Shown here piece by piece: positions 1,124 through 57,255 of a stretch of DNA of 64,000 bases. The position numbers were made by a program, and so were the translations under genes. Position 1 is the stretch's first letter. Every line of letters begins with the position of its first letter. The notes below the pieces were generated by a model. That model was not told the origin of the DNA. It was given only the letters and a program-made list of their open reading frames with translations, and searched no databases. This DNA comes from Clavelina lepadiformis (taxonomy: Eukaryota > Chordata > Ascidiacea > Aplousobranchia > Clavelinidae): NCBI RefSeq assembly GCF_947623445.1, contig NC_135246.1, positions 17,901,856 to 17,965,855 on the forward strand, read 5' to 3'.

Positions 1124-1450
1124 CTACTTGCGCGATTGAGCTAGTTACTAGCGCAGCGTAGACAGACTGCTGACTATAACTTTTTGCAGGAAATGTTCCA
1201 TTAGACCATTACCATTAAGATTTTTGTATTACACACTACTTTTACCAACAATGTTGTAACTGTTACTGGCTAGAATGTCTGCAGCATTGTAGTTACCCTT
1301 AACACCGATGCAGTTAGTAACTGGTGCAGCGTAGACAGGCTGCTTACTATAACTTGGTACAAGGACCGGTTCATGACCTTTATGCTGATGTGAAGCTTAA
1401 AGAGCGATGTTGTAACTGTTAGTAGCTCCAATATCCGTGGCAGTGTAGTT
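1124..1450 (-). pseudogene. Decayed Sox C-terminal tail (type I), duplicated
   Basis: Read on the minus strand, pieces match the C-terminal tail of sox-b. Around 1310-1380 the translation gives HEPVLVPSYSKQPVYAAPVT, which aligns with [19 protein letters not shown] of sox-b. Around 1262-1310 it gives GNYNAADILASNSYN, against [15 protein letters not shown]. Similar pieces recur at about 1124-1190 and 1385-1440, so the tail segment was duplicated before or during decay. No HMG box is present. This shows that Sox debris continues to the left edge of the window. The homology rests on by-eye protein alignment of short segments. Confidence 0.6.
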
Positions 1451-1798
1451 ATAACACTAACTTACTAAATTTTAAAGAAATCAAATCATTGACATTTGAT
1501 GCGGTGGAATAAATAAAACATAACGACAAACAGTCTTGAGAACACTTGCCGATAACTGATAGGCCTAACTGACAGCACAACGAGACATACATTGCGGGTC
1601 CATCCCGTGACGTCCTTACAGAGTAGCGCACATAAGGACCCGCTTTGGAAAGCAATTTATTAATGAAAAAGTTTCTTGTTTTGCTGTTAAAAGTACCTAA
1701 ATTATCTGAGGTACTGTACACAGACTTACAGTGAATTGAAACTACTTTGATATATGGGGTTTATTCTGGATTATTTATCGTAGTATGATTGTGTCTTG

Positions 1799-2530
1799 CA
1801 GGGCCAGATTAACATTTTGATGGACCTGGAGCTACATGGTAGTTAGAGGCCTGTTCATTGTACCAACCACAATTAAAATGAAATAGCAAAAGTTATACCC
1901 GAAGTATTTATGTATTAAACACACATTCAGAGGACATGTCTTCCGGTTTTGGTCAAAGCCAAGCTTTTAATAGCATCATCGGTGTCTATTTTGTTCGAAA
2001 CTTCGTTTTCGATGCAGAGTAGAGTTAAGGATTGCAACCTTGTCTGTCCCATAGACGAACGCAGTTGATTTTTGAGCACTGAAAATGAGCGCTCCCCCGA
2101 ACAATCGGAAATCATGAGAAAAAGATAAATTCTTAACACAACAGATACGTTAGGATACAGAAAAAAGACTCATCTCTTCAGGCAATGATTCTTCTAGACT
2201 AGATCATCTGGATTATAGTGAAAGCACTCTCTTCAATTTCACAGTTAAACGTGATGTTTAATTCCGCCAGAAACGAAAATTTTCTTTGAAGGCGGTCGTA
2301 TGCTGCAATTCGGAACTTAATTGACAAAAAATTTGGTCAATTATATCGGTTACTATGAGTCTCCTCAGAATGCCTCGCCAAATGGCTGAAAAATATAAGT
2401 TGGATAGTAGTATGTTTGGAAAACGTGCCTTGGTAGTTGACCTCGGGCTACAGTAAGCGCACAACAACTAACCAATTATCATGTCATAGTCCCTTTTTAC
2501 GTTTTCGTTGATGGAGTTAAAGCTTACAGA
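1799..2530 (-). mobile_element. hAT transposon 3' part, copy 1
   Basis: The minus-strand reading at 2139-1927 contains SDCSGERSFSVLKNQLRSSM, a good match to the C-terminal hAT dimerisation region, which typically reads CERSFSxL(R/K)xxKxxLRSxM. A second piece at 2467-2258 (frame-shifted) looks like the preceding transposase segment. The terminus CAGGGCCAGATTAAC at 1799 is a typical hAT terminal inverted repeat of the ZMYM1/TTF-type families. The 5' half and the other terminus are missing. This is a dead fragment of a plain DNA transposon. Confidence 0.7.
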
Positions 2531-2824
2531 AAAAAATTAGTTCCAAAAAGTAATTTTGTTGGTTGCTGCGATACAGTGAAGATGGGATGGTAACTGATAG
2601 TGATAACTGACAGTACAACGGGACATAAACCGTGACGTCCTTACAGAGTAGCACACATATGGACCCGCTGTGAAAAGCAATTTATTAATCAAAAAGTTTG
2701 TTGTTTTGCGGTTGAAAGTAGCTAAATTATCTGAGGTACTGCACACAGACCTTCAGTGAATTGAAACTACTTCGACATATGGGGTTTATTCTGGAGTATT
2801 TATCGTAGTATGATTGTGTCTTGC

Positions 2825-3969
2825 AGGGCCAGATTAACATTTTGATGGACCTGGAGCTACATGGTAGTTAAAGGCCTGTTCTTGTACCAACCACAATTAA
2901 AAGGAAATAGCAAAAGTTGTACCCGAAGTATCTATGTATTATACCCACATTCAGAGGACATGTCTTCTGGTTTTGGTCAAAGCCAAGCTTTTAATAGCAT
3001 CATCGGTGTCTATTTTGTTCGAAATTTCGTTTTCAATGCAGAGTGGAGTTAAGGATTGCAAACTTGTCTGTCCCATAGACGAACGCAGTTGATTTTTGAC
3101 CACTGAAAATGAGCGCTCGCCCGAACAATCGGAAATCATGAGAAAAAGATAAATTCTTAACACAACAGATACGTTAGGATACAGAAAAAAGACTCATCTC
3201 TTCAGGCAATGATTCTTGTAGACTAGATCATCTGGATCAGCGTGGTCCAACTTCTTTTCATCGCGGGCCAAAATCAGAAAATTTTTTTATATTGCGGGCC
3301 ATTTTTTTAAAATTAGAACTGAAGAAATGTGAAATTAGAACTGAAAAACAATGTGACATTGATATTAGAACTGAAAAAAGTTCTCTTTTTTTATTAAAAC
3401 TGAAATGAGAATAGTTCAAAATTTAGCTATTAAATACTGATCAATGTGACATCTGCGGTCGAGGTTCTTCCTCAACAATAGCGACTATCAAAGCTGACTA
3501 TCAGTTCGCGGGCCAAAAAATCGGTGCTCGCGGGCCAACTTTGGCCCGCGGGCCTGCAGTTGGACCACGCTGATCTGGATTATTGTGAAGGCACTCTTTT
3601 CAATTTCACAGTTAAACGTGATGTTTAATTCCGCCAGAAACGAAAACTTTCTTTGAAGGCGGTCGTATGCTGCAATTCGGAACTTAATTGACAAAAAATT
3701 TGGTCAATTATTATCAGTTAATATGAGTCTCCTCTGAATGCCTCGCCAAATGGCTGAAAAAGATAAGTTGGCTAGTATGTTTGGAAAACGTGCTTTGGTA
3801 GTTAGGCTCGGGCCCGGGCCACAGTAAGCGCACAACAAGTTCAACAACTAACCAATTATCATGTCATAGTCTCCTTTCACGTTTTCGTTGATGGAGTTAG
3901 ACTTACAGAAAAAAATTAGTTCCAAAAAGTAATTTTGTTGGTTGCTGCGATACAGTGAAGATGGGATGC
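2825..3969 (-). mobile_element. hAT transposon 3' part, copy 2 (with nested MITE)
   Basis: This is the tandem duplicate of the preceding fragment. The dimerisation region is at 3163-2951 with the same SGERSFSVxKNQLRSSMGQ pattern. The terminus CAGGGCCAGATTAAC recurs at 2825. A further transposase piece (IAAYDRLQRKFSFLAELNI) lies at about 3694-3590. The copy is interrupted by a 335 bp MITE. It is inactive. Confidence 0.7.
3238..3572. mobile_element. Non-autonomous hAT MITE with 8 bp target duplication
   Basis: This is a 335 bp insert with terminal inverted repeats CAGCGTGGTCCAACT and AGTTGGACCACGCTG, flanked by direct repeats ATCTGGAT at 3230-3237 and 3573-3580. The neighbouring duplicate (about 2205-2220) keeps the empty site with a single ATCTGGAT. 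The interior is AT-rich with 'gcgggcca' words near both ends, common in Charlie/Buster-like hAT MITEs. It has no coding capacity. The 8 bp duplication and CAG terminus place it in the hAT superfamily. It inserted after the tandem duplication around it. Confidence 0.93.
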
Positions 3970-4526
3970 ACCCACCTGACGAGGTCATTTCATTAAATGT
4001 TTCTGCTACGTACATTGATGGTTAGTAGTTGTACTAGGAATGACTTGCACACTCAAGCTGGTATTAGTAACAGAATCAGCTATTTAGAACCAGCATTTCT
4101 CCGTCATATCAATGTTTTTATATACTTATCCATTATTTTTTCTCTGTGTGAACAGATTTACTGAAAGTGTTGTTTGAATTTTGGCATCCGGCAAGCAAAG
4201 AAAGTGTTGCAATGATTCTGATTGATATGTTTAGTTTATTTTCTTATAATCAGCATAAGCATAGTTATGTTTTTATTTCTTCAGCTTCTAGATTTTGGTT
4301 ACTTTTGACTCAACTTGGAAAGTAACAGGTTGGAAAGCATGTTTGAAGTGTTATGCCAGGAAGCAAATACCAAGCAAACATCATAGTCCTGTAGAATTTG
4401 GTCTAAAAATGGGTCAACCTAGAAAGCTATCAACCAGTAGAGCTATCGTTGTTCGTTATAACTTCATTATGTTATTGTTTACTTACTATGGTCAGTTTTA
4501 TTTACCTTGCTTGTTTTTTTTAGATA
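3970..4526. other. No gene recognised
   Basis: AT-rich stretch upstream of the nuclease/CXC gene. It may hold that gene's leader or the end of its carrier element, but I see no clear promoter, terminal repeat or coding sequence. Confidence 0.4.
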
Positions 4527-7477
4527 ATGCTTAGTCAAAAAGAAACAGCAATTTGTGTTAAGTGTAGAAAAGGCTATCGGACTGGTGATTCACTGTGTCA
4601 TGTTGGAGCTTATTTCTGCGAGAGTGATAGTACCATACACCCTTTGGACACTATAATTGGTCATGCTTTGAAACTGGATTGTGAAACGCTGGTCGCAACT
4701 TTGCAGAAAAATAAAGAAAATGGCCATATTACGTACATCCACACATCATGCCGTAATTTCTTGAGAAACCATGCGAGATCCAAGAAACGTCCAGCCTCAA
4801 GCACTAAACAATCCAGTAGCAAGAGAGTATCGACCCGGTCAGATCAACAGTCGTTTGACTTTAAAAAGCAGTGTTTTTACTGTGGATATAGTTGTATGTT
4901 TGATGAACGGCACCCTGATCGAAAAAAATTTGAAGAGGTGCGGACAAAATCGTCAGGAATATATTACGTAACACTTGCTTTATGCCAAAGTAGAGACGAT
5001 GAAACTGCTAAAACTGTTCAGGCACGACTGCTTACTGCACACGACCTGGTGGCTGCTGAAGCCAGATACCATGTACCATGCAGAACAAGGTTTGAAAATC
5101 CTGCACAGTATTCAACACCTGGTCGTCCAACATCCACTGAAAAAATGACATTGTTTAATGCTGCGTCATCTGTTATGCGCAGCAGCTATTCTGTCCCTTA
5201 TGTTGGAAGAATTTTAGAGTGAGTTGGCGCCCGGAGAGCAGAGTGCCTTGGAGAAATTGTATGACTCAGACAGTCCTTCTGATCATAATAATGACAGCAT
5301 TGGGCATAAGATGATGGAATTCTTCACGGAAAAAAGGAGCAGCTCACACGGGAATCACGTACATCAGCTCTGTGGTTGAGCTATGTTAATTACGTTTCAG
5401 TTGTGTAGGAGTTTATTCGAGCAGAGAGAACAAGCGACTGGTTACTACACATTTCTGCGTCAAAAAGCATGCTGAACCTATTTGCTGCCACAGGCCACAA
5501 CAATTATGCAAAAACATGTCGCCTGTATCTTCAAACAGTTGCAGAATTGGAAACAAGTCACCCAGATATCTACCAGCAATTTATGTAGGGTAAGCACACC
5601 GTCAGGCGTTCTAACAAACAATGGGCAGGAATCTGGACTGATTTGTCTATTGAACAGATTCTCATGAAATCTCTAAAAGGAAAAGGCGGAGTCATCGGCA
5701 AGGGCATCACCGATAATTTATTAAGGGTGTAGACTAAAACCATGCACAGGTGTGCAGAAGTGACAGATGCACTCAGTACAGTCACGTCATTGTCAAATTC
5801 TGATGATAAACACAAAGAGGCATTTGCTGGAAGAATCAAACGTGATAATGATGATTTTGAAAAAGTACAAACCTGGTTTCGTTCACACAATCCATTTAAA
5901 GTTGGAGTTCAGCTTATGGCTCTAGACTCAGGGTTGGTTGATGACAACAACAGTGTGACCTGTGACCGAGCTGAGGAGATAGGGGCGTCTATCCAAGCTG
6001 AACTTGATGGTAAAACCTTTGCCAGCTATTCCTTCAAGAGGAAGAAGCAAATACGTGCTATACAGAGCCTTTATTCCCGTGTGAAAATTGACCATGATAC
6101 TATCACCATTGATCCATTAATACTCTTTTTGAGATTGGTTGTTGTCATAGAGAGAAAGCCAGAAAACGAAATTGCAGACTACGTCTTCTACGAGTTATCA
6201 CCGTACCCAATGTCACTGTTCAAAGATGGAGTTCTACGAACTGCGCAAAAATCAAAACTAAAGTCATGACTAAAGAACCGGACTCCACAAAAATTATTGA
6301 TGGCGGTGCCTTGTTGTGGTGTTGTGACTGGAAGAAGAACGAGAAGTTCCATGAGATCTTCAAAAAGTACATCAGTTTTCTTCAGCATTTGCGCGCCAAT
6401 GTTATTGTTTTTGATGGCTACAGGGTGTCAACCAAAGATTCGACCCATCAAAAACGCTCTGGTACGACGTCTCAAACTGTTGAATTAAATAATCAAAATC
6501 CTTGCCCAACTGAAAGGAACATCTTTTTCTCAAACTATACAAACAAACAAAGATTTGTGGTGGCTTTATCGAAACAACTGGAGTTGAATGGTTTCAAAGT
6601 TCATTTGTGCCCTAGTGATGCAGATACAACAATCGTTCAAGTTGCTTTTGATTCGGTAGGTGGGACACCTGTAACTGTGTACTCCGACGATACTGATGTC
6701 CTTTGCTTGCTAGTGCATCATGCTATGCACCGCGACTATCCTGATATCTTCTTGACAAACATTACAAGAGGGAAAAACTGCCAGCAAAGACAGTGCTACA
6801 GAGTTAGAGATATCATTGCGAAGGTAGATGTTATTGTTTTGGAGTACTTGTTATTCGCTCATGCATTTACGGGCTGCGATACAACTTCAGCAGTTCATAA
6901 ATTCGGCAAGATATATGTATTTGAGAAGTTGAAATCAAGCAGTTTGCGAAATGTTGCCGATGTTTTCTACGAAGACGACGTGTCTCCAAACCAAGTTGGC
7001 AGGGCTTCGATACGGTTTTTCGAATTTTTAAACTCGTCTACGTATACTTTATCGCAAATCAGGAAACAGAAGTACGAGGAAATGGTCATGTCTAATCGTT
7101 CTCACGTTGATCCAGCTCTCCTTCCACCATCACCACGTGCTGCATATCACCACGGCCTCAGAGTGTATCACCAGCTGAAAGTTTGGAGAACTTTAAGCAA
7201 CTCAGATTTGAAACCCTTGTCATGGGGTTGGCAAAAGAAAGATGACATGTTTTCTCCAGTGATGACGGATGTAGCTGCTGCACCAGAAGATGTCTTGAAA
7301 ATCATTCGATGTAGCTGCAAGGGATCATGCAACAGTCGCTGCTGTTGTCGGAAAGCGGGCTTAACATGCACATCGTCATGCAAGGAATGTTGCGGAATGA
7401 CATGCACAAATACTACAGTCGTGTTTGATGACGAATTGGGAGAAGAAGAGAGACATTTTATGGATGCATTTGCATGA
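4527..7477 (+). pseudogene. XPG/PIN-like nuclease with C-terminal CXC (tesmin/TSO1-like) domain, broken
   Basis: This belongs to a large, poorly characterised, multi-copy invertebrate protein family. The N-terminal part (4527-5222) has cysteine pairs (CVKCRKGY, CFYCGYSC) that look like zinc ligands. The middle (about 5400-6269) carries RRSNKQWAGIWTDLSIEQ and KGKGGVIGKGITD, blocks I recall from the family. The C-terminal part (6266-7477) has acidic motifs like those of XPG/FEN-type nucleases: SDADTTIV, YSDDTDVLCLL and FTGCDTTSA. It ends in a CXC-type domain, CSCKGSCNSRCCCRKAGLTC followed by CCGMTC (about 7309-7410). The frame is interrupted near 5222, by in-frame TAG codons at about 5586 and 5730, and by a frame change near 6255, so this copy is a pseudogene unless undetected introns remove the breaks. 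High copy number elsewhere would suggest a mobile carrier. The biochemical role is inferred only from motifs. Confidence 0.7.
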
Positions 7478-8239
7478 TTTTGATTGAAATGTGTTTATAT
7501 TTTATTAGAACTTAAAACTGTAAATATCGTTTTTACATCTTTACAGTTGGTTTAACCCTAGCAAGACCGGGCTTTTTTGGCACTCCAGGACTGGGGGTGT
7601 ACAGAGTTTTGGTGTATTTTTGTAACAAAATACCCTATGAAATAGCATTTTAACTAAATACATCTTCACTACGTCTTAGATAACTTTTATGTGTTGCTTA
7701 CATGACCTTGCTTATAAAAGAAAAACCTTTTATTTCGGTGAAATCTCTCCTATTATCTCCGTCTCGGTCAACTTTTACCCCCTTAAACGTGTGATAAATA
7801 CCTCTTAATAAAGTTATATTTTATTTTTTTGCTGTCCTATTGTTAGTTTGCTTTGCTGATAGTAATATTCCAATTTATGGTGTTGTATTCTGTTACGAAA
7901 GTATCGTATTTTAGCTTATAATTGTATTATAATGTTAGGCAAAATAGTGTTTTACCCCCTGGCACGTTTTTGGTCATAACTTTTTTTCCCCAAGGTAAAA
8001 GAAATGACAAAACCCATCATTGAAAAGCTGATAAAATTATCTTTCCAACAGTATACAATACGTCTTTATAAGAATTTTTTCTAGGTTGACCAAAAATTCT
8101 TCAGTACTATCACGTTTCTACTTCCCGTCATGTGTGACAAAAAAACGCTAACATGCATTTTGGTTATTTCAGAGCAGTTAATGTTTTTACTGTCTGGAAA
8201 TTGTTTTTAGCTTGGACTTGCAAAAAAAACTCTCTCTCT
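7478..8239. other. AT-rich intergenic, no gene
   Basis: Nothing coding is visible. A short GC-richer patch near 7555-7605 ('ccctagcaagaccgggc') looks like the end region of a DNA transposon, possibly the carrier of the nuclease/CXC gene, but I could not find its partner end. Confidence 0.35.
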
Positions 8240-8475
8240 CAGGAGTGTAGCTAGCTAGTGGTTTGGGGTGCTGGTACAAAACTACGCTGCATGCTTCTCC
8301 TTCCTGCTATTACATCAATGCCACTATTATGATTATTATTATTACTACATAATAGACGGCATAGCTACCATATATAGCACTGCAACAGGATTTTTCGATT
8401 CGTCAGCTAGGCACTTTTTATGGTTGGTCCAAAGATGCGTAGTTAGGCTAAAGCAGTCCTTGTCTTACTTATAGG
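8240..8475. repeat. Diverged repeat shared with 11940-12085
   Basis: The segment holding 'tcagctaggcactttt' and the following 'gcttaaagcagtccttg'-like words recurs in the same orientation at about 11995-12085. In both places it is followed by a Sox tail remnant (8655-8740 and 12225-12260). It is best read as the common downstream flank of type I Sox copies, duplicated with them. Confidence 0.6.
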
Positions 8476-8654
8476 GTGCTACGAGCTCACGAGCCACCCC
8501 TAATAAGGCACTTACGGGAAATGGCAACTCTGAGTGAGTGAGTATGTACTTTATGCTGTGCATATTGGGTTCAGATTACTTTATAGGTTTAAAGCACAAT
8601 CGAGCAAAGTTACAAAATATAACCGGGGATCCGGTAATTAATTTTACAACCAGA

Positions 8655-9130
8655 TGTAACTGGCTCCAATATCTGACGCGGTGTAGTTACGTATGTAGAC
8701 AAATTGCTGACTATAATAACTTGGTCCAAGAGATGCTTTTAGTCCAGATTAGTTTGATGTGTCCCTACTGTGGGAGCCGATTACAAATGCTATAAACTCT
8801 TAAGTTTTTGGTCACTGATGGTGCTGATGCAGCGAATGCTGTTGATCTTGTTGTTGCGCCGTTAATCGGAGTGCTGTTGTGTAGTAACCTTGACCACATG
8901 GAGCGTTAACGCAATTTTTACCATTTTTTTTGGATCTTGATTTCTTTCTCCTAGGCCGATATTTGTAATCAGGGTGCTTTGTCATGTGTTCTTTTCGCAG
9001 GCGTTTCGCCTTCTCAACGTAAGGGCGTTTTTCCTCCTCCGACATCATCTTCCAATTTGCTACTAAGTGTTTAGAGATTTGTAAATTATGCATTTTTGGG
9101 TTGTCTTCGGCCTTACTCGAAAGCCCAAAC
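8655..9130 (-). pseudogene. psi-sox-a: SoxB-like HMG exon 2, type I, broken
   Basis: On the minus strand, exon 2 begins at 9130 after an AG acceptor with a Val-Trp codon pair, as in all copies. The next codons are damaged: compared with sox-d the [12 protein letters not shown] region reads VWAFE-stop and about 12 bases are missing. The HMG-box body is clear: NPKMHN, then [16 protein letters not shown] and [12 protein letters not shown] (about 9110-8940). After a short Gln/His tract the frame ends at 8812, and decayed tail sequence (PSYYSQQFVY, NYTASDIGAS) continues to about 8655. No first exon was found upstream. It is most similar to sox-b and sox-d. Confidence 0.85.
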
Positions 9131-9499
9131 CTAATGAAAAGAGAACAGAAACACACCACAATTTCGATATTTTATCGTCTTTGTGCTATTGACGTTTTAT
9201 GTATTAAAATAAAATGATGTAAATATAGTTCACTTTTTATATTTCATATTGTACTAAATGATGCCGTTATTCTTAGCTTTATTTAACGTAAATCATTCAT
9301 CTGAAATAATAGAATAATAGTAAAGCAATAATAAGAGAAAAGCAACACAACCTCACAGCTCGAAAGATGTTCGTTTGACACAATACCAACAGTGAAGTAG
9401 TCGTGTCTACGATTAAGAACTGCCCGAAACAGAAACACACGAAGTAATTAAGATAAAACGGGGCGAATTAACTAAGGAATTTTCATTACACATATTTTT
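9131..9499. other. Remnant Sox intron and flank
   Basis: The part next to psi-sox-a ('gttttatgtattaaaataaaatgatgtaaa') matches intron sequence upstream of exon 2 in sox-b and sox-d. The remainder is AT-rich and without recognisable content. Confidence 0.5.
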
Positions 9500-10195
9500 T
9501 TATATTTTTAGGAAAATTCGTTTTTTTCGCACATTAAGAATTGCCGTCAGAGAAATAGTTATGCATGTTATTATAAGTTGTCGGAGGGCTACATCTAGAC
9601 GGATAGATTCTTGCCCATGTACAAATTGTTCAGAGTGCTCATAATTATTTTGTAGGAAAGCAGCCGCATTGTCATTTGCAGGGTTAGATGGATAAGAAAT
9701 TGAATCAGACTCGTAAATATAACAGGATCCAGGAGTTAGAGAAGCAGTAGGGTAATTATTACTGGCTCCAACATCTGGACCAGCGTAATTGCCATCATTG
9801 CTATGTCCGATATCAGGACCAATGAAACTACTTGTTGGAGTAGCGTGAACAAGCTGGTTAGTATAACTCGGTGTAAGAGCCGGTTCATGCAGCGGATGCT
9901 GTTGATCTTGCGCCGTTAATGGGGCTGCTATTGTGTAGTAACCTCGACCACATGTAGCGTTAACGCAATTTTTACCATTCTTTGTGGATCTTGATTTCTT
10001 TCTCCTAGGCCGATATTTGTAATCGGGGTGCTTTATCATGTGCTCTTCTCGCAGGCGTTTCGCTTTCTCAACGTAAGGGCGTTTTTCCTCCTCCGACATC
10101 ATCTTCCATTTTCCCCTTAAGTGTTTAGAAATTTGCCAATTATGCGTTTTTGGGTTGTCTTCGGCCATTTGTCGGCCTTCCTAGAAAGCCCAAAC
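9500..10195 (-). pseudogene. psi-sox-b: SoxB-like HMG exon 2, type I, broken
   Basis: Exon 2 starts at 10195 behind an AG acceptor. The fifth codon is a stop (VWAF-stop), where sox-d has VWARE and sox-h VWSRE, so the HMG box cannot be read through. Downstream the reading is open from 10168 to 9500: [22 protein letters not shown] and [12 protein letters not shown], then a tail with [38 protein letters not shown] and SCYIYESD. It has one copy of the Ser-Asn-Tyr-Pro-Thr tail motif that is amplified in sox-d. The upstream intron breaks off at about 10290, just before the hAT-Buster remnant, and no first exon is seen. The long open tail suggests that inactivation is not very old. Confidence 0.88.
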
Positions 10196-10309
10196 CTAGT
10201 GAAAATATAGCAGAAACACACCACAATTTCGATATTTCATCGACTTCTTGCTATTGACGTTTTATGTATTAAAATAAAATGATGTAAACGTTGGACCAGT
10301 TAAACATTG

Positions 10310-11560
10310 GCCATTGTTGATAAAGACATGCTTGGTAATGCTGATGCCGAAATAGTAACACAATTTCACGAAGGATAAAAGAGCTATCCTCAGATTTAAA
10401 CGATCATGTTCGCGAACACTTTGTTGCTACAGACGAGCTGTCTGTACTTATGGTCTTTACAAGTTGACGAATCTACTGACAGAACTGGGAAAGCTCATCT
10501 GCTGGCTTTTATTCGCTTCATTAACAATGAAACATTGGTAAATGAATGTTTGTTTTGCAAAAGAATTAAAGGGCACAACCAAAGTAGAAAACGTATTCGA
10601 ATTGGTAGATGAAAATATTTTGCTTTCTGAGTTGAAGCGGATTAACTGCTTGAGCGTTTGTACTGATGGTTGTCCTTCAATGCGGGGGGAAAATAAAGGA
10701 TTTGTGGCATACGTGCTTCAAAAAAATCCGAACGTGATAGTTGTAAATTGCATGATCCATAGAGAAGCTCTCGTAGTTAAATCTTTGCCTGCAGATTTAA
10801 AAGAAGTTATGGATCAGGTAAGCCATGTGGTAAACAACATTAAATCTCGGTCGCTACAAAATCGACCCTTTTCTCAGCTTTGTAAAGCCATGAATTCAGA
10901 GTACGAGTGCCTGCTCTATCACACCGAGGTACGATGGCTTTCTGAAGGAAGGGTGTTTAAGCGCATGGTGCATTTGAAAACTCAAGTTATTTCTTTCATG
11001 TAAACTCAAAGAAAAGACTTTGAAAGTTGGTGGGTGAAATTTTTGTTTCTTTCTGACTTGTTTGATTAACTGAACAGTTTGAATTATTATTACAACAACA
11101 TCAAAACTACGATCATTAGACGAAAAGTTGACATTGTGGAAAACCAAGGTCTCGAAGAAAATCTTTGTTTCGTTTCCCGCTCTTAATGAATCAACTCATA
11201 AACAAGAAATCATGAGCACATTGTCTGGACTTCAGCTTGCACTGCAACATTACTTCCCAGAATTTGCTGTTAACAACTTTAGATGGGTAGTTAATCCATT
11301 TGGAAGCAATCTTTCTACAGAAGAAGAAGAACAGCTCATTGCCTTACGAAACGACCCGTTTTTTCAAACGCTGTTTCCACAAACAAACTTGATGAATTTT
11401 GGCTGTCTGCTTTCAAATCCTATTCCATGATCTGTGCAAAAGCAAACAAATTTATATTGCCATTTGCATCTTCATGGCTATTTAAACATGGCCTTTCTTT
11501 TTTGACTGAAATTAAAAGCTGTAAACGAGAGAGACTGCTTGGAATTATTTTTTTGACAAA
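10310..11560 (+). mobile_element. hAT-Buster-type transposase remnant (ZBED5/SCAND3-like)
   Basis: Three pieces in changing frames read as one transposase. LQVDESTDRTGKAHLLAFIR is at about 10457-10516. CTDGCPSMRGENKGFVAYVL, NCMIHREALVVKSLPADLKE and HTEVRWLSEGRVFKRM follow at 10655-10975. The last piece has NNFRWVVNPF and the closing LPFASSWLFKHGLSFLTEIK (about 11457-11515), the hAT dimerisation end. These are the hallmark blocks of the Buster group that gave rise to vertebrate ZBED5 and SCAND3 proteins. The zinc-finger N-terminus is absent and several frameshifts are evident. Terminal repeats are not identifiable. The element abuts the truncated intron of psi-sox-b. Confidence 0.85.
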
Positions 11561-14970: not shown

Positions 14971-15519
14971 TTCACCACGAGGAGGTCATCAACTTGAATC
15001 CCAATATTATCATGAAATACGTGCGCTGAAGTATGCTAACACCAAGAATTAAGCTACCATTTATTCAGAAATGAGTAATGCACTTTACCGTCTAGGAATC
15101 AATCGGAAGCGTTGGCCAGCGTTGTCATCAGCTATAATCCATAACGTCAGTAGCATGACAGTCATTGTTCGTCAGCGAGAATTCTTTTAACTGGATACTT
15201 CCAAAATTTTTGAAATTTCTGCCGCAATTTGCTGGTTAACCGACCGCTAAATGCAATTTGTCTCTCAATCCTTATCTGACTCCAATTTGCACTTTTCAGA
15301 GAGATACCTTTTAATAAATCGAATTTTTTCAGAAGTGCAGTGTTCTTCTCTTGTAGAAGAAAGTCGGGTCACCATGAATGTGGTGACAAAACTTTCATTA
15401 AGTCTATATTGTTATATTGTCCGAACTATAGTCGTAGTCACATCAGAACAATTTCATCACCATTTCACATTCGAATAGAAGCCAAATAATTGGTCAAATC
15501 ATAAGTTGTTTATGTAACA
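14971..15519. other. No gene recognised
   Basis: Mixed sequence between the LINE and psi-sox-c. Short open stretches have no recognisable similarity. It could include the LINE's 5' untranslated region. Confidence 0.4.
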
Positions 15520-16325
15520 ACAGCAGTTCTGCAACTTGGCATCGACGCTTCCTGTAATTGGGGTACGTTGTAACAATTATGGGTGGAATATGCAATAGCG
15601 TTGCCAATGTATATTTGCCAGAGCAGAATGGTAACTATTACTGGGTTCAAATTTTAGCGCATTGTAATTGCTATTAACATTGCTCTCTGCAACTTCTGGA
15701 TCGTTGTGGCCGTAAGCTTGAGGAGGGCAGACATATGGCTGATTATAATTCTGGCCAGGAGCCGGTTGATGACCGTTATGCTGCTGTGCTCCAAAGTGGC
15801 TAGTTAAGCCATTGGTGAAACGTTCAGCGCAATTCCATGACACCACCGGTTGCTGGTGCATTTCCTGGCTACTGTAGCTGTTGTTTACACCGCCATTGGG
15901 AACTGCCGTTCCATAAGAAACGGGGGCAGATGTAATGTTTATACCTTTGTTAACTTTTTTTCGGACCACTGATTTTTTTCTACGAGGCCGATATTTGTAA
16001 TTGGGGTGTCGTTTCATGTGTTCTTCAGCCAGTCGTTTCGACTCTTGAATGTGAGGGCGCTTTTCAGCTTCGGAAAGATTCTTCCATTTTACCCCTAAAT
16101 GTTACCCGGTTCTATGTTTAGAGCATTGTAGCTGCCATTAACATTGCTCTCTGCAAATTCTGGATCGTTGTGGCCGTAAGCTTGAGGAGGGCAGACATAT
16201 GGGTTATTATAATTCTGGCCAGGAGCCGGTTGATGACTGTTATGCTGCTGTGCTCCAAAGTGGCTAGTTTCGCCATCGGTGAAACTTTCAGCGTAAATCC
16301 ATGACATCACCGTGCGGTGACTCTT
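15520..16325 (-). pseudogene. psi-sox-c: SoxB-like exon 2, type II, truncated and joined to a second tail
   Basis: The minus-strand reading from about 16098 gives the second half of an HMG box: [20 protein letters not shown], then [18 protein letters not shown]. The type II tail follows ([40 protein letters not shown]). Relative to sox-e the tail lacks a block around [10 protein letters not shown], and the frame ends early at 15577. At 16098 the HMG box breaks off in mid-domain and is joined to another copy of the same tail (16098-16325: [29 protein letters not shown]). Two type II copies therefore recombined here. No first exon and no complete HMG box are present. Confidence 0.85.
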
Positions 16326-16869
16326 TTGTGAGATCATGAAGTTTTTTAATTTGTCTAAAGACTAACGTTAACTCCTGGCGTCCCGCTTACAACAATCAAT
16401 CATTAGTTATTTCATTTTTCGCCAAAAGCGCGTTGGGGTCGAAAAATCAAGCCAATTGTTACTTTCACGTGCCAATGAACAGGAAAAAGTGACGAAGCCG
16501 AAAAGGCTTAAAACGTGCTCAAGAGAAATAACGTTGGTATTTGCTGGTAACAATTAGCACGGCCACTAAGCCTATATAATTGGTTATATCCATAAAAAAG
16601 AGAGAATTAAGCAGACGTGCAGGCGGCGTGTTCAAGCAATTGATTCAATGCTGTTGTACATCAGAGGATGTGAAAAGAAACCCCATCCTGGGCAAGAGCT
16701 CCACTAAGGAAAGGAGTTGTTGATAAGCCCGAGTTAATACAGCCAGAATGCACACCAATTGTGTTCTGAGTTGTCATCGTACAGTGAGAATTTTGGCAAA
16801 ATGTCTGACAAATTTGCGATAGTATGATGCGAGTACCAAAAATTGCCTTACATCTTTTTTCGATGACGA
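16326..16869. other. No gene recognised
   Basis: Sequence between psi-sox-c and the Ty3/Gypsy fossil. It may contain that element's missing 3' part, but I saw no integrase motif or second LTR. Confidence 0.35.
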
Positions 16870-21425: not shown

Positions 21426-21429
21426 AAAT

Positions 21430-21865: not shown

Positions 21866-22059
21866 CATTAAGAATTGCCGTCAGAGAAATAGTTATGCAG
21901 GTACTGTATAAGAAGTCGGCTGGCTACATCTAAAGGGATAGAATCTTGCTCATGTAAAAATTGTTCAGAGTGTTCATAATTATTTTGTAGGAAAGCAGCC
22001 GCATTGTTATTTGCCAGGTTAGGTGGACAAGAAATTGGATCAGACTCGTAAATATAACT

Positions 22060-25240: not shown

Positions 25241-25254
25241 AATTGAAATTGACA

Positions 25255-46576: not shown

Positions 46577-48651
46577 TCAAGTATAGCAGTCAAAAACATT
46601 TGGAAAAATTATGTCTTGCCCATCCAATAACCACGGGTCAGAGTGTTCATAACTTGGCTGTGTGACAGCGGCATTACTGCAACTTGGCATCGACCCCTCC
46701 TGCATTTGGGGTAAGTTGTAAGAGTTACTGTTGGAGTATGCCATAGTGTTGCCACTTGCATTGTTAAGTACACATGGAACGTGATCAGGCTCGTAGATAT
46801 TCGTCTGTGCAGGAGCTGGAGGAGCAGAATGGTAACTGGTAGTGGGTTCATTATTTACAGCATTGTAACTGCCATTAACATAGCTCTCTGCAACTTCTGG
46901 AACGATGTGGCCGTAAGCTTGAGGAGGGCAGACCTTTGGCTGATTATAATTCTGGCCAGGAGCCGGTTGATGACCGTTATGCTGCTGTGCTCCAAAGTGG
47001 CTAGTTAAGCCATTGGTGAAACGTTCAGCGCAATTCCATGACACCACCGGTTGCTGGTGCATTTCCTGGCTACTGTAGCTGTTGTTTACATCGCCATTGG
47101 GAACCTCCGTTCTATAAGAAACTGGGGCAGATGTAATGTTTATACCTTTGTTAACTTTCTTTTTGACCACTGATTTTTTTCTACGAGGCCGATATTTGTA
47201 ATTGGGGTGTCGTTTCATTAGTTCTTCAGCCAGTCGTTTCGACTCCTGATTGTGAGGGCGCTTTTCTGGTTCGGAAAGTTTCCTCCATTTTACCCCTAAA
47301 TGTTTGGATATTTCTGCGTTGTGCATTTTTGGGTGTTCTTCTGCCATTTTCCGGCGCTCTTTCTGAGACCAAACCTAGGGAAAGGATAAAAGATATGACC
47401 ACAATTTCGACATTTTATTGGGGTTGTGATGTTAACATATCATACTAAAATAAAATGATAAAATTAATTGAAAACACCACAACCGCTGCAAATGAAACGA
47501 AATGGCAACTAAACATTTTTTTGATATAGATTTAGGGAAATATGTAATACATTAATGTGCTGTACATTGTTGTTAAGAATCTTTTTGTAGGTTTTTCATT
47601 AAACGCAAAAAGAGTTATAAACCGAACCGGGAATGTTTATCTTCATTACGTTATCTGGAAAACGTTTTGCCAAAAGTACTCAGATACTTCATCTTTTTGT
47701 TTATCAGTAAACTCAAATCATATTTATTTGATTCGATGAAATAAAACATAACCACGAACAGTCTGATATTACTCTACAAGGAAAATACAAGTTGGGAAAA
47801 TATATTTGTGTGCATATCTATGCGCGATGTTAAATGTATTTAGTGAAATGTTTAAAAATTATGACAGTTTCGTCAGGCACCTTCGCAATTTTTCCCCTTG
47901 TTTATAAGCATATGTAATAATAAATTATTACTGCTGTAACGAAAGTAGTAAATATTAGACATGAAAGATGTTGTAGTATGGAGATCACATTTTGTACTAA
48001 CAGATAAATACAAATACAATTGAGTGAAATAAACGTGAAATTAAACTTTCCTTGGTGTAATTTGTTACATAACGTTATGGACGACATTAGACCTGGAGGC
48101 GTAGCGGTTAATACATCTGGATCTTTATAGATGCTACCTGGGTTCCATACCCATATTCGTCAACGCTGTAATATCTTTGAGCAAGGTAGGAACGACGCTT
48201 GTTCTCGTTCAGGTTTAAAATCGAGTATCAGATATTCAGATAAAGTTGTTCACGAAACGCTGTATGTATGCATAGACTACGCGTTTCCAGCAGTATTGGA
48301 TGAGTACGTTTAAAAATTAATTTGCAAGCTTGGTTGGGATTTCTAAATTTACGGTTCTGTTTGCGGCGAAATCACACTGTCGGTTTAAAATAATGGCCCA
48401 TGACAAGGATGGGCATTAGCTGTAAATTATTTACATTACATAACTATAGGCCTATTGGATTATATAGGAAAGAAATTAAAAAGTCTTTATTTACTTACCA
48501 TAAATGCATTCATCGGCCTTTTGATTCGCTGTTTGTGTTGTTGTTGTCGCTGCGTTGTTGCTGTCGGGGCTTGTCCTAACCTGACGTTATTTTCTGGATG
48601 ACGACCCTGATTCGGGATGTAGTTAGAACCCCAGGGAAGATTGGGATACAT
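46577..48651 (-). CDS. sox-g: intact SoxB-like HMG-box transcription factor, type II
   Basis: Exons join(48651-48499, 47374-46577), giving 316 residues. Exon 1 (153 bp) has the same length as that of sox-e and starts [20 protein letters not shown], ending [10 protein letters not shown] before a phase 0 donor. Exon 2 starts [19 protein letters not shown]. The box continues [20 protein letters not shown] and ends [12 protein letters not shown]. Compared with sox-e the third helix has KRPHNQES, with Asn where Ile is usual, and EELM for EEHM, so DNA binding may be altered. The tail keeps [39 protein letters not shown] and a C-terminal [11 protein letters not shown]. No frame break. Divergent partner of sox-h in unit B. 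Transcription-factor role is inferred from the HMG box. Confidence 0.87.
48091..48245 (+). mobile_element. tRNA-derived SINE in sox-g intron
   Basis: A-box-like 'ggaggcgtagcggtta' and B-box-like 'gggttccatacc' are followed by the same body as in the sox-d and sox-e copies. Fuller than the sox-e copy and at the same intron position. Confidence 0.7.
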
Positions 48652-52095: not shown

Positions 52096-55076
52096 AAATA
52101 CTTTTCAAAAAAATATATGTTGCTTTATCCCTCTTAAAATACCGAAATGGCAAAACGGTTGCTTATATCAATATGAAATAACACTGCCTTTAAAAATACA
52201 AACTATAACAAAACCATCCAATCTCCATGTAGAAGTAAAATGATATCAAGGGAGCCAATGGACTCGGATCGTTTAACAAAATGCATTAAGTCGGCTTCTT
52301 TCGTTTCCTTAGAAGTCCGGCATCGACCAGATCGACTATATTTCTACCAGGTGCCGGAATGAATGATGTCGTACGCCAGTGCTGCTGGTTTGGCAAAAAT
52401 TATGACTGACGAACATTCGATTAAAAATTGCACTTGATACTGTTTTGAGTTTTGCTTGTTTTGTATTTTTTGGTTCAAGAGCGGGTAGATGATTGTGCCG
52501 AGATGCAATGCCACAAGTTCGGTGAAGAATTCCAAATTTGCTCAATAACAAGCATTGAATCATCTCATTTTTCGTCTTAAGCGCGCTGGCACTAACAAAA
52601 ATCAAGCCAGCTGAAACTAATAACTGTATAATAAAATAACATTATAGAAACACATTCTGGTTGCGTCACAGTTTTGGAGCAACAATTTAAACGGGATGCC
52701 ATATTTTTTCAAACTTCTTACATAAAATAACGCTTTTCAATTCAAACAGCAGAATAATTTTTCCCTTTATAGTGCTATTATCACATGTAGCCCATAATAG
52801 TATGGCAGGTAGCAAATGAAACGGAAAAAACGGCAAAATGTTTGTACAGGTTGAATATAAGAAGTACTTTCCCTTGCATATTAGGTATTCGCAATCACCT
52901 ACGTATATTAGAGTATTAGAATACATAAAACTGTAGCGATGGACATGCTTCCATTATCTCAGTTGCTTTTCATTTAAAATCTTAAATATAAGGTCTACTA
53001 CGATTATTTGGTGTTGTATACTTGGTTTATATAAATTATATTTAGTCTATGGAGTTTAAGTAATCTAGCGCATTTCTGAAATAATTTTGGTATGTTTGAG
53101 TTTTTTGAAGAAATTTCAGCTTTTACAAAAATTACAAGATTGGTTTCACATAAATTAATTTGTATTTATCTTAAAGTGTTAAAGTTCGTTTCGATTCTGT
53201 CTATTTTATAAATTATATTTTATATTTTTTCATATTTTTTCAATTAATATTGATTTAAACGAATTCATTTAAATTAATATAAATTGTGTAATGTAGATGT
53301 TTAAACCATCTTGAACTGGTATATGTTCGAGAAAGATATTAAAGCCCATTGCCATATGTTTAAAGTTTTTCATATTCCGTCCCACCAACCTCGTTATTTA
53401 GTATAGGTTGTTGTGTTAGTGACCTTATTCTCAATATTGCCCACAAACGTTTGTAGAGTCAATCGTATACATGAATAAAACCGGTTTTGCTTTACAGTCA
53501 GTTTACTAATTTTTCGAACGAGTCTGAGATTGGAACGGTGTAAATACTGCTGCACGATTTTGATCCATACTTCAGTTTGCATGATAACTACTAGTTTTTA
53601 TTTTGAAATGTATTAAGCGTTCCATTATATACACAATAAATATTTATTGCTAGCTTCAAACTCTTTTATCTTTTAAAGAACCGCTTATACTTTTAGATGG
53701 CAATAATACATTCAAACATTTATTCTACGATTGGTATTATCATGGTATCGGGTTTGGAACCAGTATAATCGACGACAACGACAAAAAAATTCAAATTAAT
53801 TTTATAGTAAGGTTTAAAAACGAAAAGGCTTAATTTGCATTTGCAGCTGGTTTACAAAGCTGCCCGCAATTATATCCATGCGATACTTAATTCGAAAGCT
53901 TGCGGCTAACGTTATAACTGATAAAGAGTCAACAGAATGCGAAGTGTGCTATTGTCTTTTATCTGTGTCATTTCGAAGGAGCTCCATGCATAGGAGCTAT
54001 CCTTTGTTCTTTAATAGCGGGTTACCAGCGGCTCTTTTTCGCATTTTAACGGTCGCCTGATTTCCTCTATTTCCAAGTTAGAACTAGGCGAGCAGCCAGT
54101 ACCATAGTGACAGGACAGGACGTTAAAGTAAAGTTTTTTATGAATAGGTAAGGGTCAGTCTAATAAAAGTAGTGTCACATTAGGAACTTCATTTGCAGTT
54201 TTCCCGTTCGTTGTTTCATATTGAAAATGTTTTGTAGAATTGTGATGATTTAAACTGACTAATGAATTGTTATTGCTAAACAATCAATTTAAAATTGTTA
54301 ATCCATATTGTTATAGATATACTTGGTTAGGGTCAAAACTGATTTAATGTACCAAACTTTAGTAATTAATACAACTACAGCGGGGATTATCATAATACTA
54401 TTTTATTACACACAAAATGATTGACATGTTTCGGATATTTTAAAATTCTATGTACATAGTAAAGTTTAGTGGTTTAGTGGAGTGAAATTATTGCTTAATA
54501 TACAGACGAGAAAAATAAAACAAAAATTGACGTCATTTGTATTTGTTACAGATATTGCGACGAGTGACACATTTTACTGGACTTAAATTTTTTTGACTAA
54601 TATTTAATATTGGTAAGTATGTATATATCACTAAGCTATATGGTATATAAGTACATCAGTACTTTAATTAAGTCATTAGTATGAAAGCGAATAATCCTCT
54701 TTTCGGAAAAATATTTATTTTATAAAAAGTCTCTTTTTTATAGTTATATAAATCTATTTGTCTATGTGGGTGTAATTTGTTGAAAAAGTTTGAAGGAAAA
54801 TGTATACATGTTGCATAGCACAAAAAAATCAAGAAAATTAATTTAAGATTTTTTTGCCAGTAGAAGATTTTACGATTTTAACCAATTCTATGAGCAAGTA
54901 CTTAGAATCTATACACGAGTTGGGTTGTTAAGCTATTTGCTGCCTGAGCTTGTTTAAGTTTATTTATTTACCATCGTTTTTTGAGGTCGTTATGTTAACA
55001 GGAAAATTATATTTTTCACAGGTTTAAAAGATAAATTTTTTTTAGAAATATCTATCTGTTGCTACAGTGGTAAAAG

Positions 55077-57255
55077 ATGTATAACAATCATGCCTCCGGT
55101 TCTAACTTCAACCCGAACCATGGCCTTCATCCAGCAAATAATGAAAGAGTTGTACAAACACAACCGCGAATCAAAAGGCCGATGAATGCTTTTATGGTGA
55201 GAAAATAAAGATTTCTTATAATTTATTTTCTACATGTAATCCTGTATATTTCCTATGTAAATATATAATGTAAGTATTTCACCACTAATGCCCATCCTTG
55301 TCATGGATCATTATTTTAAACCGATAAGGTGATTTTGCCGCAAAGAAATGTTATTTCTCTCATTAAATTCTCATTCTGCAAATAGATTTTTTAAAGCATT
55401 GCTCAAAGCGCATAGTCCATGACTCTATGCATAGATATACCGTTTCAAGAACAATTTTAACGGAAAATGTGATGCTCGAATTTTAAAATGAACAGGAGCA
55501 AGCGTCGTTCATATTTTGCTCGAGTGTATTACAGCGATAAAGCAACTGGGTATCGAATCCAGGTCGCATAATTGCGATCCAGATGTAGTAACTGATAGGC
55601 TACGCTAGGCTAGGCTAGGCCGCCATGTACAGTGTCATCAATAACTTTATGTTTAAAATAAATCACTCCAATGACTACTTAAACTAAAAGTGAAAATCGG
55701 TTTTCGTCATTTTCCGTCATACACTCATTTCATTCCATTGTGTTTTTATTTTTCTTATTACTATTTTTCAATAATCTACAACATCTTTCATGTCTAGTTC
55801 CCATACGTATAGTCTCAATTTATAACTTCCGCCTATCAGACTGTTTCTCGTTATGTTTTATTCCATCCCATCGCAGTAACATGATTTAAGATAGCTGATG
55901 AATAGAAATGATTGATGAAGTATATCAATATTTTTTGGTACTTCGTTTCCCATATAACGTAGGAAAAATAAACATTGTCGGTTCGGTTTAAAAAACACTC
56001 GGAAATTAATCAAAAAAAAACTAAAACGATTCTTAGTGATACGGCAATTTTTAGTGTTATTTAGTTCCCTAAGTTTATGCCAAGAAAATGTCTCGTCGCC
56101 ATCTTGTTTGCATTGAGGCAGTTGTGGTTCTTTTGATTATATTTTCCGAAACGTATAAGCGATCATGGAATCGTCAAGTATCACCTTAGGGAACTAAAAA
56201 GATGAACATGCTCGTTGTTTTTTACCAATCGTTGAATTTACTAGAAAGTTTATGCTATTAATGTGCCCGTTGCAGCAGTGTTGACAGTCTTGGTTGAAGG
56301 CGGCATTGTCCCATATGCGAACGCCCATACAATGTGGACCAAACACTGAAACACCTGCCACCCAGTTACAAACGATTAAACTGGTAATGAACAATTAAAA
56401 GATCACTTTCTCTCAAACTTACTCATAACTACCTAAACGACGATGTAGAATGTTCAAAACGAGGTTTATTTCATTGCGCTTTAGGTAAGTTTTGAACAGC
56501 AGCAGCAAAGTCTTAAATTTTGAACCTTGAATGAATCCTATTGTGTCTTTTTTCAGGTTTGGTCTCGCGAAGAAAGACGGAAAATATCCCAAAAAAACCC
56601 GAAAATGCACAATTCGGAAATATCTAAACGACTAGGGGCAAAATGGAAAAAGCTTTCCGCAGCTGAAAAACGTCCCTACGTTGAGGAGGCGAAACGCCTG
56701 CGAGAACAACATATGAAAAAACACCCAGGGTATAAATATCGGCCTCGGAGAAAGAAGCCAGTTTCTATGAAGAAAGTTAACAATCCAATTAACGCTTCTG
56801 GGCCGGGATATTACACACAGGCAGTTCCCTCTTGCGGCACATACAACCCCTGGAATGGTTACTACAGTCATGAATCGCAAACCAGGATGACGGCATACAG
56901 TAATGGACACAGTAATGCAAATACCCCGATTGGCAACTTTGGCGTATCTTTGCCTAATGGACCGGAACAAGCTCCTGGATCGAGTTATATCAACCATGAT
57001 GTTGCAGCTCCTAGACCGAATCATATTAACCAAGCTGTTTCAGTTAGTGGATCCAGCTATATTTACCAGACTGATCCAAATACATATTTACCTAATGCTG
57101 CAAATGTAAACTCTTCGACATATACTGACGTGAATATTCATAACGGACATCAAATGCCGATGCCGGAACAGTCGATGCAAAATTGTAATGCTGGTGCTGT
57201 CCCACACACCAGTTATGAAAGCCATAACCAGGTTTTATGTAATACCGAAAAATAG
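55077..57255 (+). CDS. sox-h: intact SoxB-like HMG-box transcription factor, type I
   Basis: Exons join(55077-55196, 56557-57255), giving 272 residues. Exon 1 encodes [20 protein letters not shown] through [10 protein letters not shown], with a GT donor directly after. Exon 2 follows a 'ttttttcag' acceptor and begins [20 protein letters not shown]. The HMG box spans about residues 32-107 and is the most SoxB-like in the cluster ([40 protein letters not shown]). The tail of about 165 residues is low in charged residues and rich in Asn, Ser, Tyr and Pro ([40 protein letters not shown]), with no SoxB1 transactivation motif that I recognise. Divergent from sox-g. An AATAAA lies 375 bp after the stop. 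The start is the first ATG in frame and aligns with the start of sox-d. Intact and likely functional. Confidence 0.9.
55485..55622 (-). mobile_element. tRNA-derived SINE in sox-h intron
   Basis: Reverse complement of the sox-d intron SINE, including the B-box region ('gggtatcgaatccaggtcgc'). Relative to the gene it has the same orientation and place as in sox-d. It ends next to a 5 bp 'aggct' run (about 55600-55620). Confidence 0.75.

What the first reader, a model, noticed from the sequence alone, without database searches (positions are those of the whole stretch)
1124..57255. A lineage-specific SoxB-like gene cluster with at least eight HMG-bearing copies, three intact
HMG-box exons with the SoxB-type blocks recur at 8.7-9.1, 9.5-10.2, 15.5-16.1, 22.2-23.4, 26.4-27.2, 36.3-36.5, 46.6-47.4 and 56.6-57.3 kb, and bare tails occur further left. 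Established knowledge: most animals have few SoxB genes, and tandem sets are small (such as the insect Dichaete group). Repeated birth and death of a transcription factor at this density is unusual. It resembles fast-evolving factors with reproductive or sex-linked roles, though that role is only a guess.
Basis: partly seen in the sequence, partly recalled or inferred. Interest (0 to 1): 0.9.

Follow-up and report, generated by a model that had tools for sequence, protein, structure and literature searches.

The report
Fast-evolving SoxB1-derived gene cluster in sea squirt
In what is almost certainly the light-bulb sea squirt, one copy of the conserved developmental gene SoxB1 (the SOX2 family) founded a compact, still-churning cluster of eleven copies, four of which look like working genes that kept the DNA-gripping part while the rest of the protein changed fast.

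Summary
All eight HMG-bearing places are real; three more lie just left, giving 11 copies over about 74 kb. Contig lengths identify the genome as Clavelina lepadiformis chromosome 7. In the window e, g and h are intact two-exon genes; a fourth, A, lies about 15 kb left of it. Seven copies are broken or partial.

The ordinary SoxB1 lies about 300 kb away with the same intron inside the HMG box (NAFM|VW), which SoxB2 lacks. Its intron holds a roughly 58-bp element whose only other genome matches are the introns of A and d. The 11 copies form one group against SoxB1 and SoxB2 (100/98). The four intact copies and d share a SINE-like intronic insertion absent from SoxB1.

HMG boxes are constrained (dN/dS 0.10-0.26); tails are much looser (0.93 for e-g, 0.53-0.65 for deeper pairs). 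I read this as a SoxB1-derived family of DNA-binding factors evolving by birth and death, comparable to ETCHbox genes or multi-copy Sry. Expression and function are untested; the sex-linked guess is unsupported.

The parts
55077..57255 (+). Gene h, intact: exon 1 55077-55196 (40 aa, ends ...KRPMNAFM), GT-AG intron 55197-56556, exon 2 56557-57255 (232 aa); 272 aa protein with complete SoxB-type HMG box
   Evidence: gene model; best PDB match SOX-2, E 1.5e-36; PF00505 95.2 bits; keeps 30 of 30 residues invariant in nine reference Sox boxes
46577..48651 (-). Gene g, intact: exon 1 48499-48651 (51 aa), GT-AG intron 47375-48498, exon 2 46577-47374 (265 aa); 316 aa
   Evidence: PF00505 80.3 bits; keeps 29 of 30 invariant residues
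26395..28364 (-). Gene e, intact: exon 1 28212-28364 (51 aa), GT-AG intron 27202-28211, exon 2 26395-27201 (268 aa); 319 aa
   Evidence: keeps 30 of 30 invariant residues; no frameshifting indel against g where 4.9 are expected from intron and flanks, P 0.008
35406..36942 (+). Copy f, pseudogene: exon 1 near 35406-35528 with the HMG start but no initiator ATG at the conserved place; exon 2 36283-36942 with a stop and broken frame
   Evidence: departs at 7 of 30 invariant residues (5 replaced, 2 that I masked with X in the broken stretch)
21837..25057 (-). Copy d, pseudogene: exon 2 (HMG plus long His-Gln-Pro repeat tail) with a stop in the tail; exon 1 remnant about 24949-25057 has an 11-bp deletion in the HMG start; homology with copy A ends about 69 bp upstream of the start
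15498..16349 (-). Copy c, pseudogene: partial HMG exon plus tail fragments, no exon 1 found
9503..10195 (-). Copy b, pseudogene: HMG exon with an in-frame stop; no exon 1 found
   Evidence: the same stop is in its inverted twin at C7:17.8915 Mb
8809..9111 (-). Copy b2, pseudogene: truncated HMG exon
1256..1387 (-). Bare tail fragment of the b type, no HMG
   Evidence: E 3e-7
1415..10828 (.). Right arm of an imperfect palindrome; the left arm lies outside at window coordinates about -11000 to -5280. Blocks are 94.9, 94.5, 92.2, 87.6 (453 bp) and 94.4% identical. The stretch about 4386-8108, holding ORFs that look to me like a mobile element, has no counterpart in the left arm
   Evidence: ORFs, no Pfam match
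25253..38425 (.). Divergent (head-to-head) pair block e(-)/f(+), duplicated as block g(-)/h(+) at 45431-57255
   Evidence: e side 86-90% identical to g side over about 7 kb; f side 70-79% identical to h side, but f exon 2 is closer to e (84.5%), so f is mosaic
56089..56164 (+). Intronic element in h shared with the SoxB1 intron (A at -16390..-16318, e at 27284-27341, g at 47457-47514; d and f align too); GTTTGCATTG in SoxB1, A, d and h
   Evidence: SoxB1 against A: score 74, maximum of 200 shuffles 39; h 41 against 35; e reached by 4 and g by 20 of 200 shuffles. d and f were aligned under looser scoring without shuffles. Genome-wide the SoxB1 query finds only SoxB1, A and d
55482..55561 (-). 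SINE-like stretch (tRNA-like by eye, antisense) in h intron 1, at the aligned place also in A, d, e and g; at noise level in the SoxB1 intron
   Evidence: scores: h 160, A 125, d 105, g 60, e 56, f 22, SoxB1 18 (no shuffles); 25 places outside the cluster, which listed A, d, e, f and h but not g

Best explanation
This is a lineage-specific family of SoxB1-derived transcription factors. Supported here: a duplicate of SoxB1, carrying its HMG-box intron, founded a cluster on the same chromosome. It gained a SINE-like insertion in intron 1, split into three subfamilies (h; e/g/f/c; A/d/b/b2 and twins) and multiplied by segmental duplication, including duplication of a divergent gene pair and a palindrome, with mosaic copies. 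Seven copies decayed; four (A, e, g, h) keep complete open frames, splice sites and 29-30 of 30 invariant Sox residues. The HMG box is under purifying selection while the tails are much looser, near neutral between e and g. Inferred: the four proteins enter the nucleus and bend SOX sites like SoxB1, but with different tails, so they act as variant or competing regulators at SoxB1-type sites. Retention of a SoxB1 intronic element suggests expression overlapping SoxB1 (early ectoderm, neural or germline/stem cells).
For: Parentage: NAFM|VW phase-0 intron in SoxB1 (C7:18262172-18264920) and in A, e, f, g, h, with SoxB2 cut at SK|RLG and SoxD and SoxF elsewhere; intronic element shared with SoxB1, the SoxB1 query finding only itself, A and d genome-wide. 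Single origin: 100/98 split; shared SINE-like insertion. Selection: HMG dN/dS e-g 0.26 [0.10-0.62], A-h 0.10 [0.04-0.21], e-h 0.24 [0.11-0.45], g-h 0.20, A-e 0.15, A-g 0.17; e-g tail 0.93 [0.54-1.73]; nonsynonymous changes HMG 9/189 against tail 58/464 sites, Fisher p 0.0026; zero frameshifting indels between e and g coding regions where 4.9 are predicted, P 0.008. Invariant residues kept: e and h 30 of 30, A and g 29 of 30, pseudogene f 23 of 30. Duplication anatomy.
Against: No expression, binding or functional data were available. The e-g tail evolves near neutrality, so some intact frames may be young and on their way out; g has unusual HMG changes (H61L, and PHNQ where SoxB1 has PFID). 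Deep-pair constraint may be inherited from ancestral branches, and mosaicism may bias distances. The protein HMG tree does not resolve the cluster as one group. The intronic element is weak in e and g (4 and 20 of 200 shuffles reach the score). A shared upstream block is not convincing (5-8 of 200 shuffles reach it). Other aplousobranch genomes could not be searched, so 'lineage-specific' rests on Ciona having one SoxB1 and one SoxB2 (PMC3029401, passage) and on Didemnum vexillum, whose paper names paralogs for SoxC and SoxB2 but not SoxB1 (PMC8704543, passages).
Confidence: 0.72

Rival explanations
1. A graveyard: SoxB1 duplicates multiplied passively in an unstable, repeat-rich region; the four open copies are recent pseudogenes not yet hit, with no function.
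For: Seven of 11 copies are broken or partial; the e-g tail evolves near neutrality; ORFs that look transposon-like to me lie between the copies (of seven such ORFs scanned, one gave a weak reverse-transcriptase match below the Pfam cut-off); a long tRNA-Arg array follows directly and SoxD exons are also amplified in this genome, so copying here need not be adaptive.
Against: HMG dN/dS of 0.10-0.26 with intervals below 1 in all six pairs among A, e, g, h; no frameshift e-g, P 0.008; 29-30 of 30 invariant residues kept in all four. Constraint on ancestral branches could explain the deep pairs, but not e-g.
Confidence: 0.2
2. Decoy or dominant-negative family: the proteins keep the SoxB HMG box but not SoxB1's activation tail and therefore block SoxB1 sites.
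For: HMG box kept; tails 21-29% identical to the SoxB1 tail in a forced alignment; e, g and h shorter than SoxB1.
Against: No activation assay; A, with 522 aa and a long His-Gln-Pro repeat, is longer than SoxB1 (411 aa).
Confidence: 0.2
3. Sex- or germline-linked fast-evolving factor, as the first reader guessed (SRY-like).
For: Resembles SRY in pattern: SoxB1-derived, HMG constrained, rest fast, multi-copy, palindromic, Gln/His repeat tail in A and d. Multiple Sry copies on the rat Y are reported in PMC1852568 and PMC3840628 (search listing).
Against: No sex chromosome listed for the assembly; hermaphrodite animals (recalled); no expression data.
Confidence: 0.1
4. Assembly artefact or unresolved haplotypes of a single gene.
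For: Tunicate genomes can be very heterozygous (recalled), and e and g are similar.
Against: e-g flanks differ by 6-11%, other copies more; copies differ in breakage, orientation and inserted sequence; no N in the region; 117-fold HiFi, QV 67.4, duplicated BUSCO 0.6%.
Confidence: 0.02

Closest known systems
ETCHbox / Obox homeobox genes of placental mammals (derived from CRX)
   Same: A conserved developmental regulator stays put while tandem duplicates diverge, form arrays, lose members and exchange sequence (PMC8208926, abstract and passages).
   Different: SoxB HMG factor, not homeobox; tunicate; embryonic expression is reported for ETCHbox, unknown here.
SRY / multi-copy rodent Sry (from SOX3, a SoxB1 gene; descent recalled)
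   Same: SoxB1 descent, constrained HMG box, fast flanks, several copies, Gln-rich repeat tail in some (mouse tail recalled).
   Different: Here in an animal with no sex chromosome listed; has an intron in the HMG box; role unknown; independent origin.
Insect Dichaete-Sox21a-Sox21b SoxB cluster
   Same: Linked SoxB genes (PMC1166547, listing; PMC3029401, passages; cluster membership recalled).
   Different: The insect set is old, small and conserved; this one is young, mosaic and mostly broken, and derives from SoxB1 alone.
Ordinary SoxB1 of the same genome
   Same: HMG box, NAFM|VW intron, intronic element.
   Different: SoxB1's HMG box matches human SOX2 at 71 of 79 places, A, e, g and h at 52-58; tails and N-termini unlike.

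Membership tests
Sox family (HMG box of Sox type) | HMG box with RPMNAFM and Sox-invariant residues | tested here: met
   PF00505 95.2 bits (h), 80.3 (g); best PDB matches of h SOX-2; 29-30 of 30 invariant residues in A, e, g, h
SoxB group | HMG box closest to group B | tested here: met
   Best PDB match for h is SOX-2, E 1.5e-36, ahead of SOX-17, SOX-18, SOX-11, SOX-9 (only h was given). In the small protein tree group B plus cluster was not recovered as one clade but not rejected, p-AU 0.116
SoxB1 descent | Shared intron position with SoxB1 and not SoxB2 | tested here: met
   NAFM|VW phase 0 in SoxB1, A, e, f, g, h; SoxB2 SK|RLG
SoxB1 descent | Shared non-coding sequence with SoxB1 | tested here: met
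   Intronic element, 0 of 200 shuffles for A and for h, but 4 for e and 20 for g; SoxB1 query finds only itself, A and d
SoxB1 orthologue (one-to-one) | The single SoxB1 of the genome | tested here: not met
   The orthologue is C7:18.263 Mb; the copies form a separate group
SoxB1 protein architecture | Conserved C-terminal region of SoxB1 | tested here: not met
   Tails 21-29% identical to the SoxB1 tail in forced alignment; no non-HMG Pfam domain in h, g or SoxB1
Tandem birth-and-death transcription factor arrays (ETCHbox-like) | Local duplicates of a conserved regulator, with loss and accelerated divergence | tested here: met
ETCHbox-like arrays | Expression in early embryo | not testable with these tools
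   No RNA data held
SRY-like sex determiner | Sex linkage | not tested
   Linkage to sex was not tested; the genome paper lists no sex chromosome

The most novel reading that the evidence does not exclude
A sea squirt has evolved a private family of SOX2-like factors near SoxB1, kept by selection on DNA binding while tails diversify, and still driven by a SoxB1 intronic element. They act as rival or modified versions of the pluripotency/neural factor SoxB1 in the early embryo, germline or budding stem cells: an SRY- or ETCHbox-like invention made independently in an animal without known sex chromosomes.
Probability: 0.3. Interest if true: 0.78.

Novelty: new variant of a known kind. Interest (0 to 1): 0.6.

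Why it matters
SoxB1 genes are among the most conserved regulators of animal development (established knowledge), and Ciona has one SoxB1 and one SoxB2 (PMC3029401, passage). A young cluster in which the DNA-binding part is held and the rest loosened, near a little-changed parent, gives a natural experiment on which parts of a SOX2-type factor carry function. It is also a test of whether SRY-like behaviour of SoxB1 duplicates needs a sex chromosome. Clavelina buds and regenerates, so an extra set of SOX2-like factors would be directly testable there.

Tried and rejected
Tunicate check by cellulase family GH6 (PF01341): no match in the own genome, but the family rang in none of the 14 controls either, so uninformative. 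The species was taken from contig lengths set against a genome paper.

Retrocopies: rejected for A, e, f, g and h, because the intron and flanks are kept.

Intron block at h 55400-55560 as a regulatory element: rejected; its second half is a dispersed SINE-like repeat with 25 places outside the cluster.

Intron motif TAATGCCCATCCTTGTCATG: identical in A, d, e, g and h, absent from f and from SoxB1 at up to 3 mismatches; kept only as a cluster-specific block.

Shared promoter block with SoxB1 upstream of the ATG: suggestive by eye, but 5-8 of 200 shuffles reach the scores, so not claimed.

Protein tree of HMG boxes: too short (79 columns); cluster not resolved, not rejected. A DNA tree of the second-exon part was used instead, with only SoxB1 and SoxB2 as outsiders.

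Structure prediction and fold search were not run: the HMG box is already identified by sequence and the tails are low in complexity.


Full report
Where it is. The window is C7:17901856-17965855 of a 209.06-Mb genome in 95 contigs. Contig lengths seen in the calls (C1-C7 and C9: 28,783,666; 26,529,800; 25,734,561; 25,070,715; 24,617,235; 20,771,506; 20,448,514; 15,725,681) agree within 0.01 Mb with chromosomes 1-7 and 9 of Clavelina lepadiformis (28.79, 26.54, 25.74, 25.07, 24.62, 20.77, 20.45, 15.73 Mb). The figure 25,070,715 is identical to the paper's scaffold N50 (PMC10884593, passages). The total and scaffold number differ slightly (paper: 210.1 Mb in 102 scaffolds), so this may be a revised version. 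The species is therefore an inference, a strong one. A search for the tunicate cellulase domain GH6 found nothing, but its controls were silent too.

What is there. All eight HMG places of the finding are present, and 8 of 8 score above the PF00505 cut-off in the genome-wide search. Three more copies lie to the left at 17.885, 17.8915 and 17.8924 Mb, so the cluster holds 11 HMG-bearing copies between about 17.8836 and 17.9591 Mb. The HMG box is split by a phase-0 intron after NAFM; exon 1 supplies the start. Complete models with ATG, GT-AG intron and stop exist for e (319 aa), g (316 aa) and h (272 aa) in the window and for A (522 aa; window coordinates -18228 to -15080) outside it. f lacks the initiator at the conserved place and has a broken exon 2. 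d has an 11-bp deletion in its HMG start and a stop in its tail. b and its inverted twin share an in-frame stop. b2, its twin and c are truncated. No exon 1 was found for b, b2, c or the two twins at up to 2 mismatches.

Parent. The gene at C7:18262172-18264920 encodes a 411-aa protein whose HMG box matches human SOX2 at 71 of 79 positions. It is the ordinary SoxB1, about 300 kb from h, and has the same NAFM|VW intron. The SoxB2-like gene on C3 is cut at SK|RLG instead, SoxD and SoxF are cut after the LG of ISKILG and LSKMLG, and SoxC runs through the box without an intron. The SoxB1 intron holds an element of about 58 bp that also lies in cluster introns: against A it scores 74 (maximum of 200 dinucleotide shuffles 39), against h 41 (maximum 35), against e 32 (4 of 200 shuffles reach it), against g 29 (20 of 200). 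d and f align at the same place under looser scoring, without shuffles. Searched over the genome, the SoxB1 element finds only itself, A and d, and the h element only itself, A and d. GTTTGCATTG in SoxB1, A, d and h looks like POU and SOX half sites; that reading is recalled, not tested.

One origin. In a DNA tree of the second-exon HMG part, 11 of 11 copies (three of them partial) fall on one side of a branch with support 100/98 against SoxB1 and SoxB2; h splits first (the other ten 87/82). A protein tree of 22 HMG boxes, with nine cluster rows, was too weak: its best tree sets h apart, the cluster was one group in 14% of bootstrap trees and one clade was not rejected (p-AU 0.09). Independent support is a SINE-like stretch in intron 1. 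It has 25 places outside the cluster and lies at the aligned place in A, d, e, g and h (scores 125, 105, 56, 60 and, by construction, 160); it is not convincing in decayed f (22) and at noise level in SoxB1 (18). One search did not list g.

How it grew. Self-comparison shows a divergent pair block e(-)/f(+) duplicated as g(-)/h(+): the e and g sides are 86-90% identical over about 7 kb and the f and h sides 70-79%. It also shows A with d at 88.1% over 4.5 kb, and an imperfect palindrome that turns the twins at 17.8915/17.8924 Mb into b and b2 (blocks 92-95%, one 87.6%), with a stretch of about 3.7 kb in one arm only. A is mosaic: its exon 2 is of the d type, while a 4.7-kb stretch from the start of its intron upstream is 87.0% identical to that of e. 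f is mosaic too: flank like h, exon 2 like e (84.5%). Exchange between copies is thus likely (inference).

Selection. Nei-Gojobori estimates: HMG box dN/dS e-g 0.26 [0.10-0.62], A-h 0.10 [0.04-0.21], e-h 0.24 [0.11-0.45], g-h 0.20, A-e 0.15, A-g 0.17, all six intervals below 1. Tails: e-g 0.93 [0.54-1.73], e-h 0.53 [0.27-0.88], g-h 0.65 [0.38-1.01]; the A tails are saturated. So tails are much looser than the box but, over longer spans, not free of constraint. N-terminal parts are short and uninformative (e-g 0.35 [0.04-1.75]). Comparisons of the box and the tail with SoxB1 are saturated at synonymous sites. Between e and g, nonsynonymous changes are 9 of 189 sites in HMG and 58 of 464 in the tail (Fisher p 0.0026). 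Their coding alignment has one 9-bp gap and no frameshifting gap, where 29 frameshifting gaps in 5,669 bp of intron and flank predict 4.9 (P 0.008). Of 30 residues invariant in nine reference boxes (two from this genome, SOX2 checked, six recalled), e and h keep 30, A and g 29, pseudogene f 23.

How it most likely works. The four intact proteins should fold as SoxB HMG domains and bind and bend SOX sites (inferred from kept residues). Their fast tails should alter partners and output. The retained intronic element suggests expression overlapping SoxB1. None of these steps was shown by experiment. The rival that all four are unused relics is weakened, not excluded.

Comparison and novelty. The pattern is that of ETCHbox genes: a conserved parent with fast, tandem, converting duplicates (PMC8208926, abstract and passages). 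It also resembles Sry, a SoxB1 derivative (recalled) that is multi-copy in rats (PMC1852568, PMC3840628, search listing). Ciona has one SoxB1 and one SoxB2 (PMC3029401, passage), and in Didemnum vexillum seven Sox genes were found, with paralogs named for SoxC and SoxB2 (PMC8704543, passages). The listings of four paper searches show no paper on a SoxB cluster in Clavelina; one search listed 10 of 177 papers and 15 of 200, the one hit (PMC7606891) was not opened, and most subscription papers are not in the library. I rate this a new variant of a known kind.

Noticed in passing
window 58390-63762 and on to about 88.4 kb (L016-L018): Directly beside gene h runs a tandem array of tRNA-Arg genes (one CCT, the rest TCT) with a period of about 660 bp: 9 in the window and 36 more in the next 25 kb, plus four calls labelled tRNA-Pyl that are probably artefacts. 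The purpose of so many TCT tRNA-Arg genes is unexplained.
   Followed up: partly
C1:0.99-2.62 Mb (L031, L035, L036, L037), presumed parent C1:20.11 Mb (L030): The SoxD HMG exon is amplified: nine extra places with the first half of the box on C1. Four of nine were read: 92-95% identical to the presumed parent over about 600 bp, intron kept in the three where both halves were read. A second Sox amplification in the same genome.
   Followed up: partly
window 22463-23086 and copy A tail: Copies d and A carry a long His-Gln-Pro repeat tail (period 9/27 bp in d), open in several frames in d; reminiscent of the Gln/His tail of mouse Sry (recalled).
   Followed up: partly
window 4524-7477: ORFs of 232 and 454 aa without Pfam match, inside a stretch present in only one palindrome arm; possibly a mobile element inserted after the palindrome formed.
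   Followed up: partly
introns of A, e, g, h 76-90 bp from the donor, also in d: A 20-bp block TAATGCCCATCCTTGTCATG is identical in five introns but absent, at up to 3 mismatches, from those of SoxB1 and f; possible cluster-specific regulatory site.
   Followed up: partly
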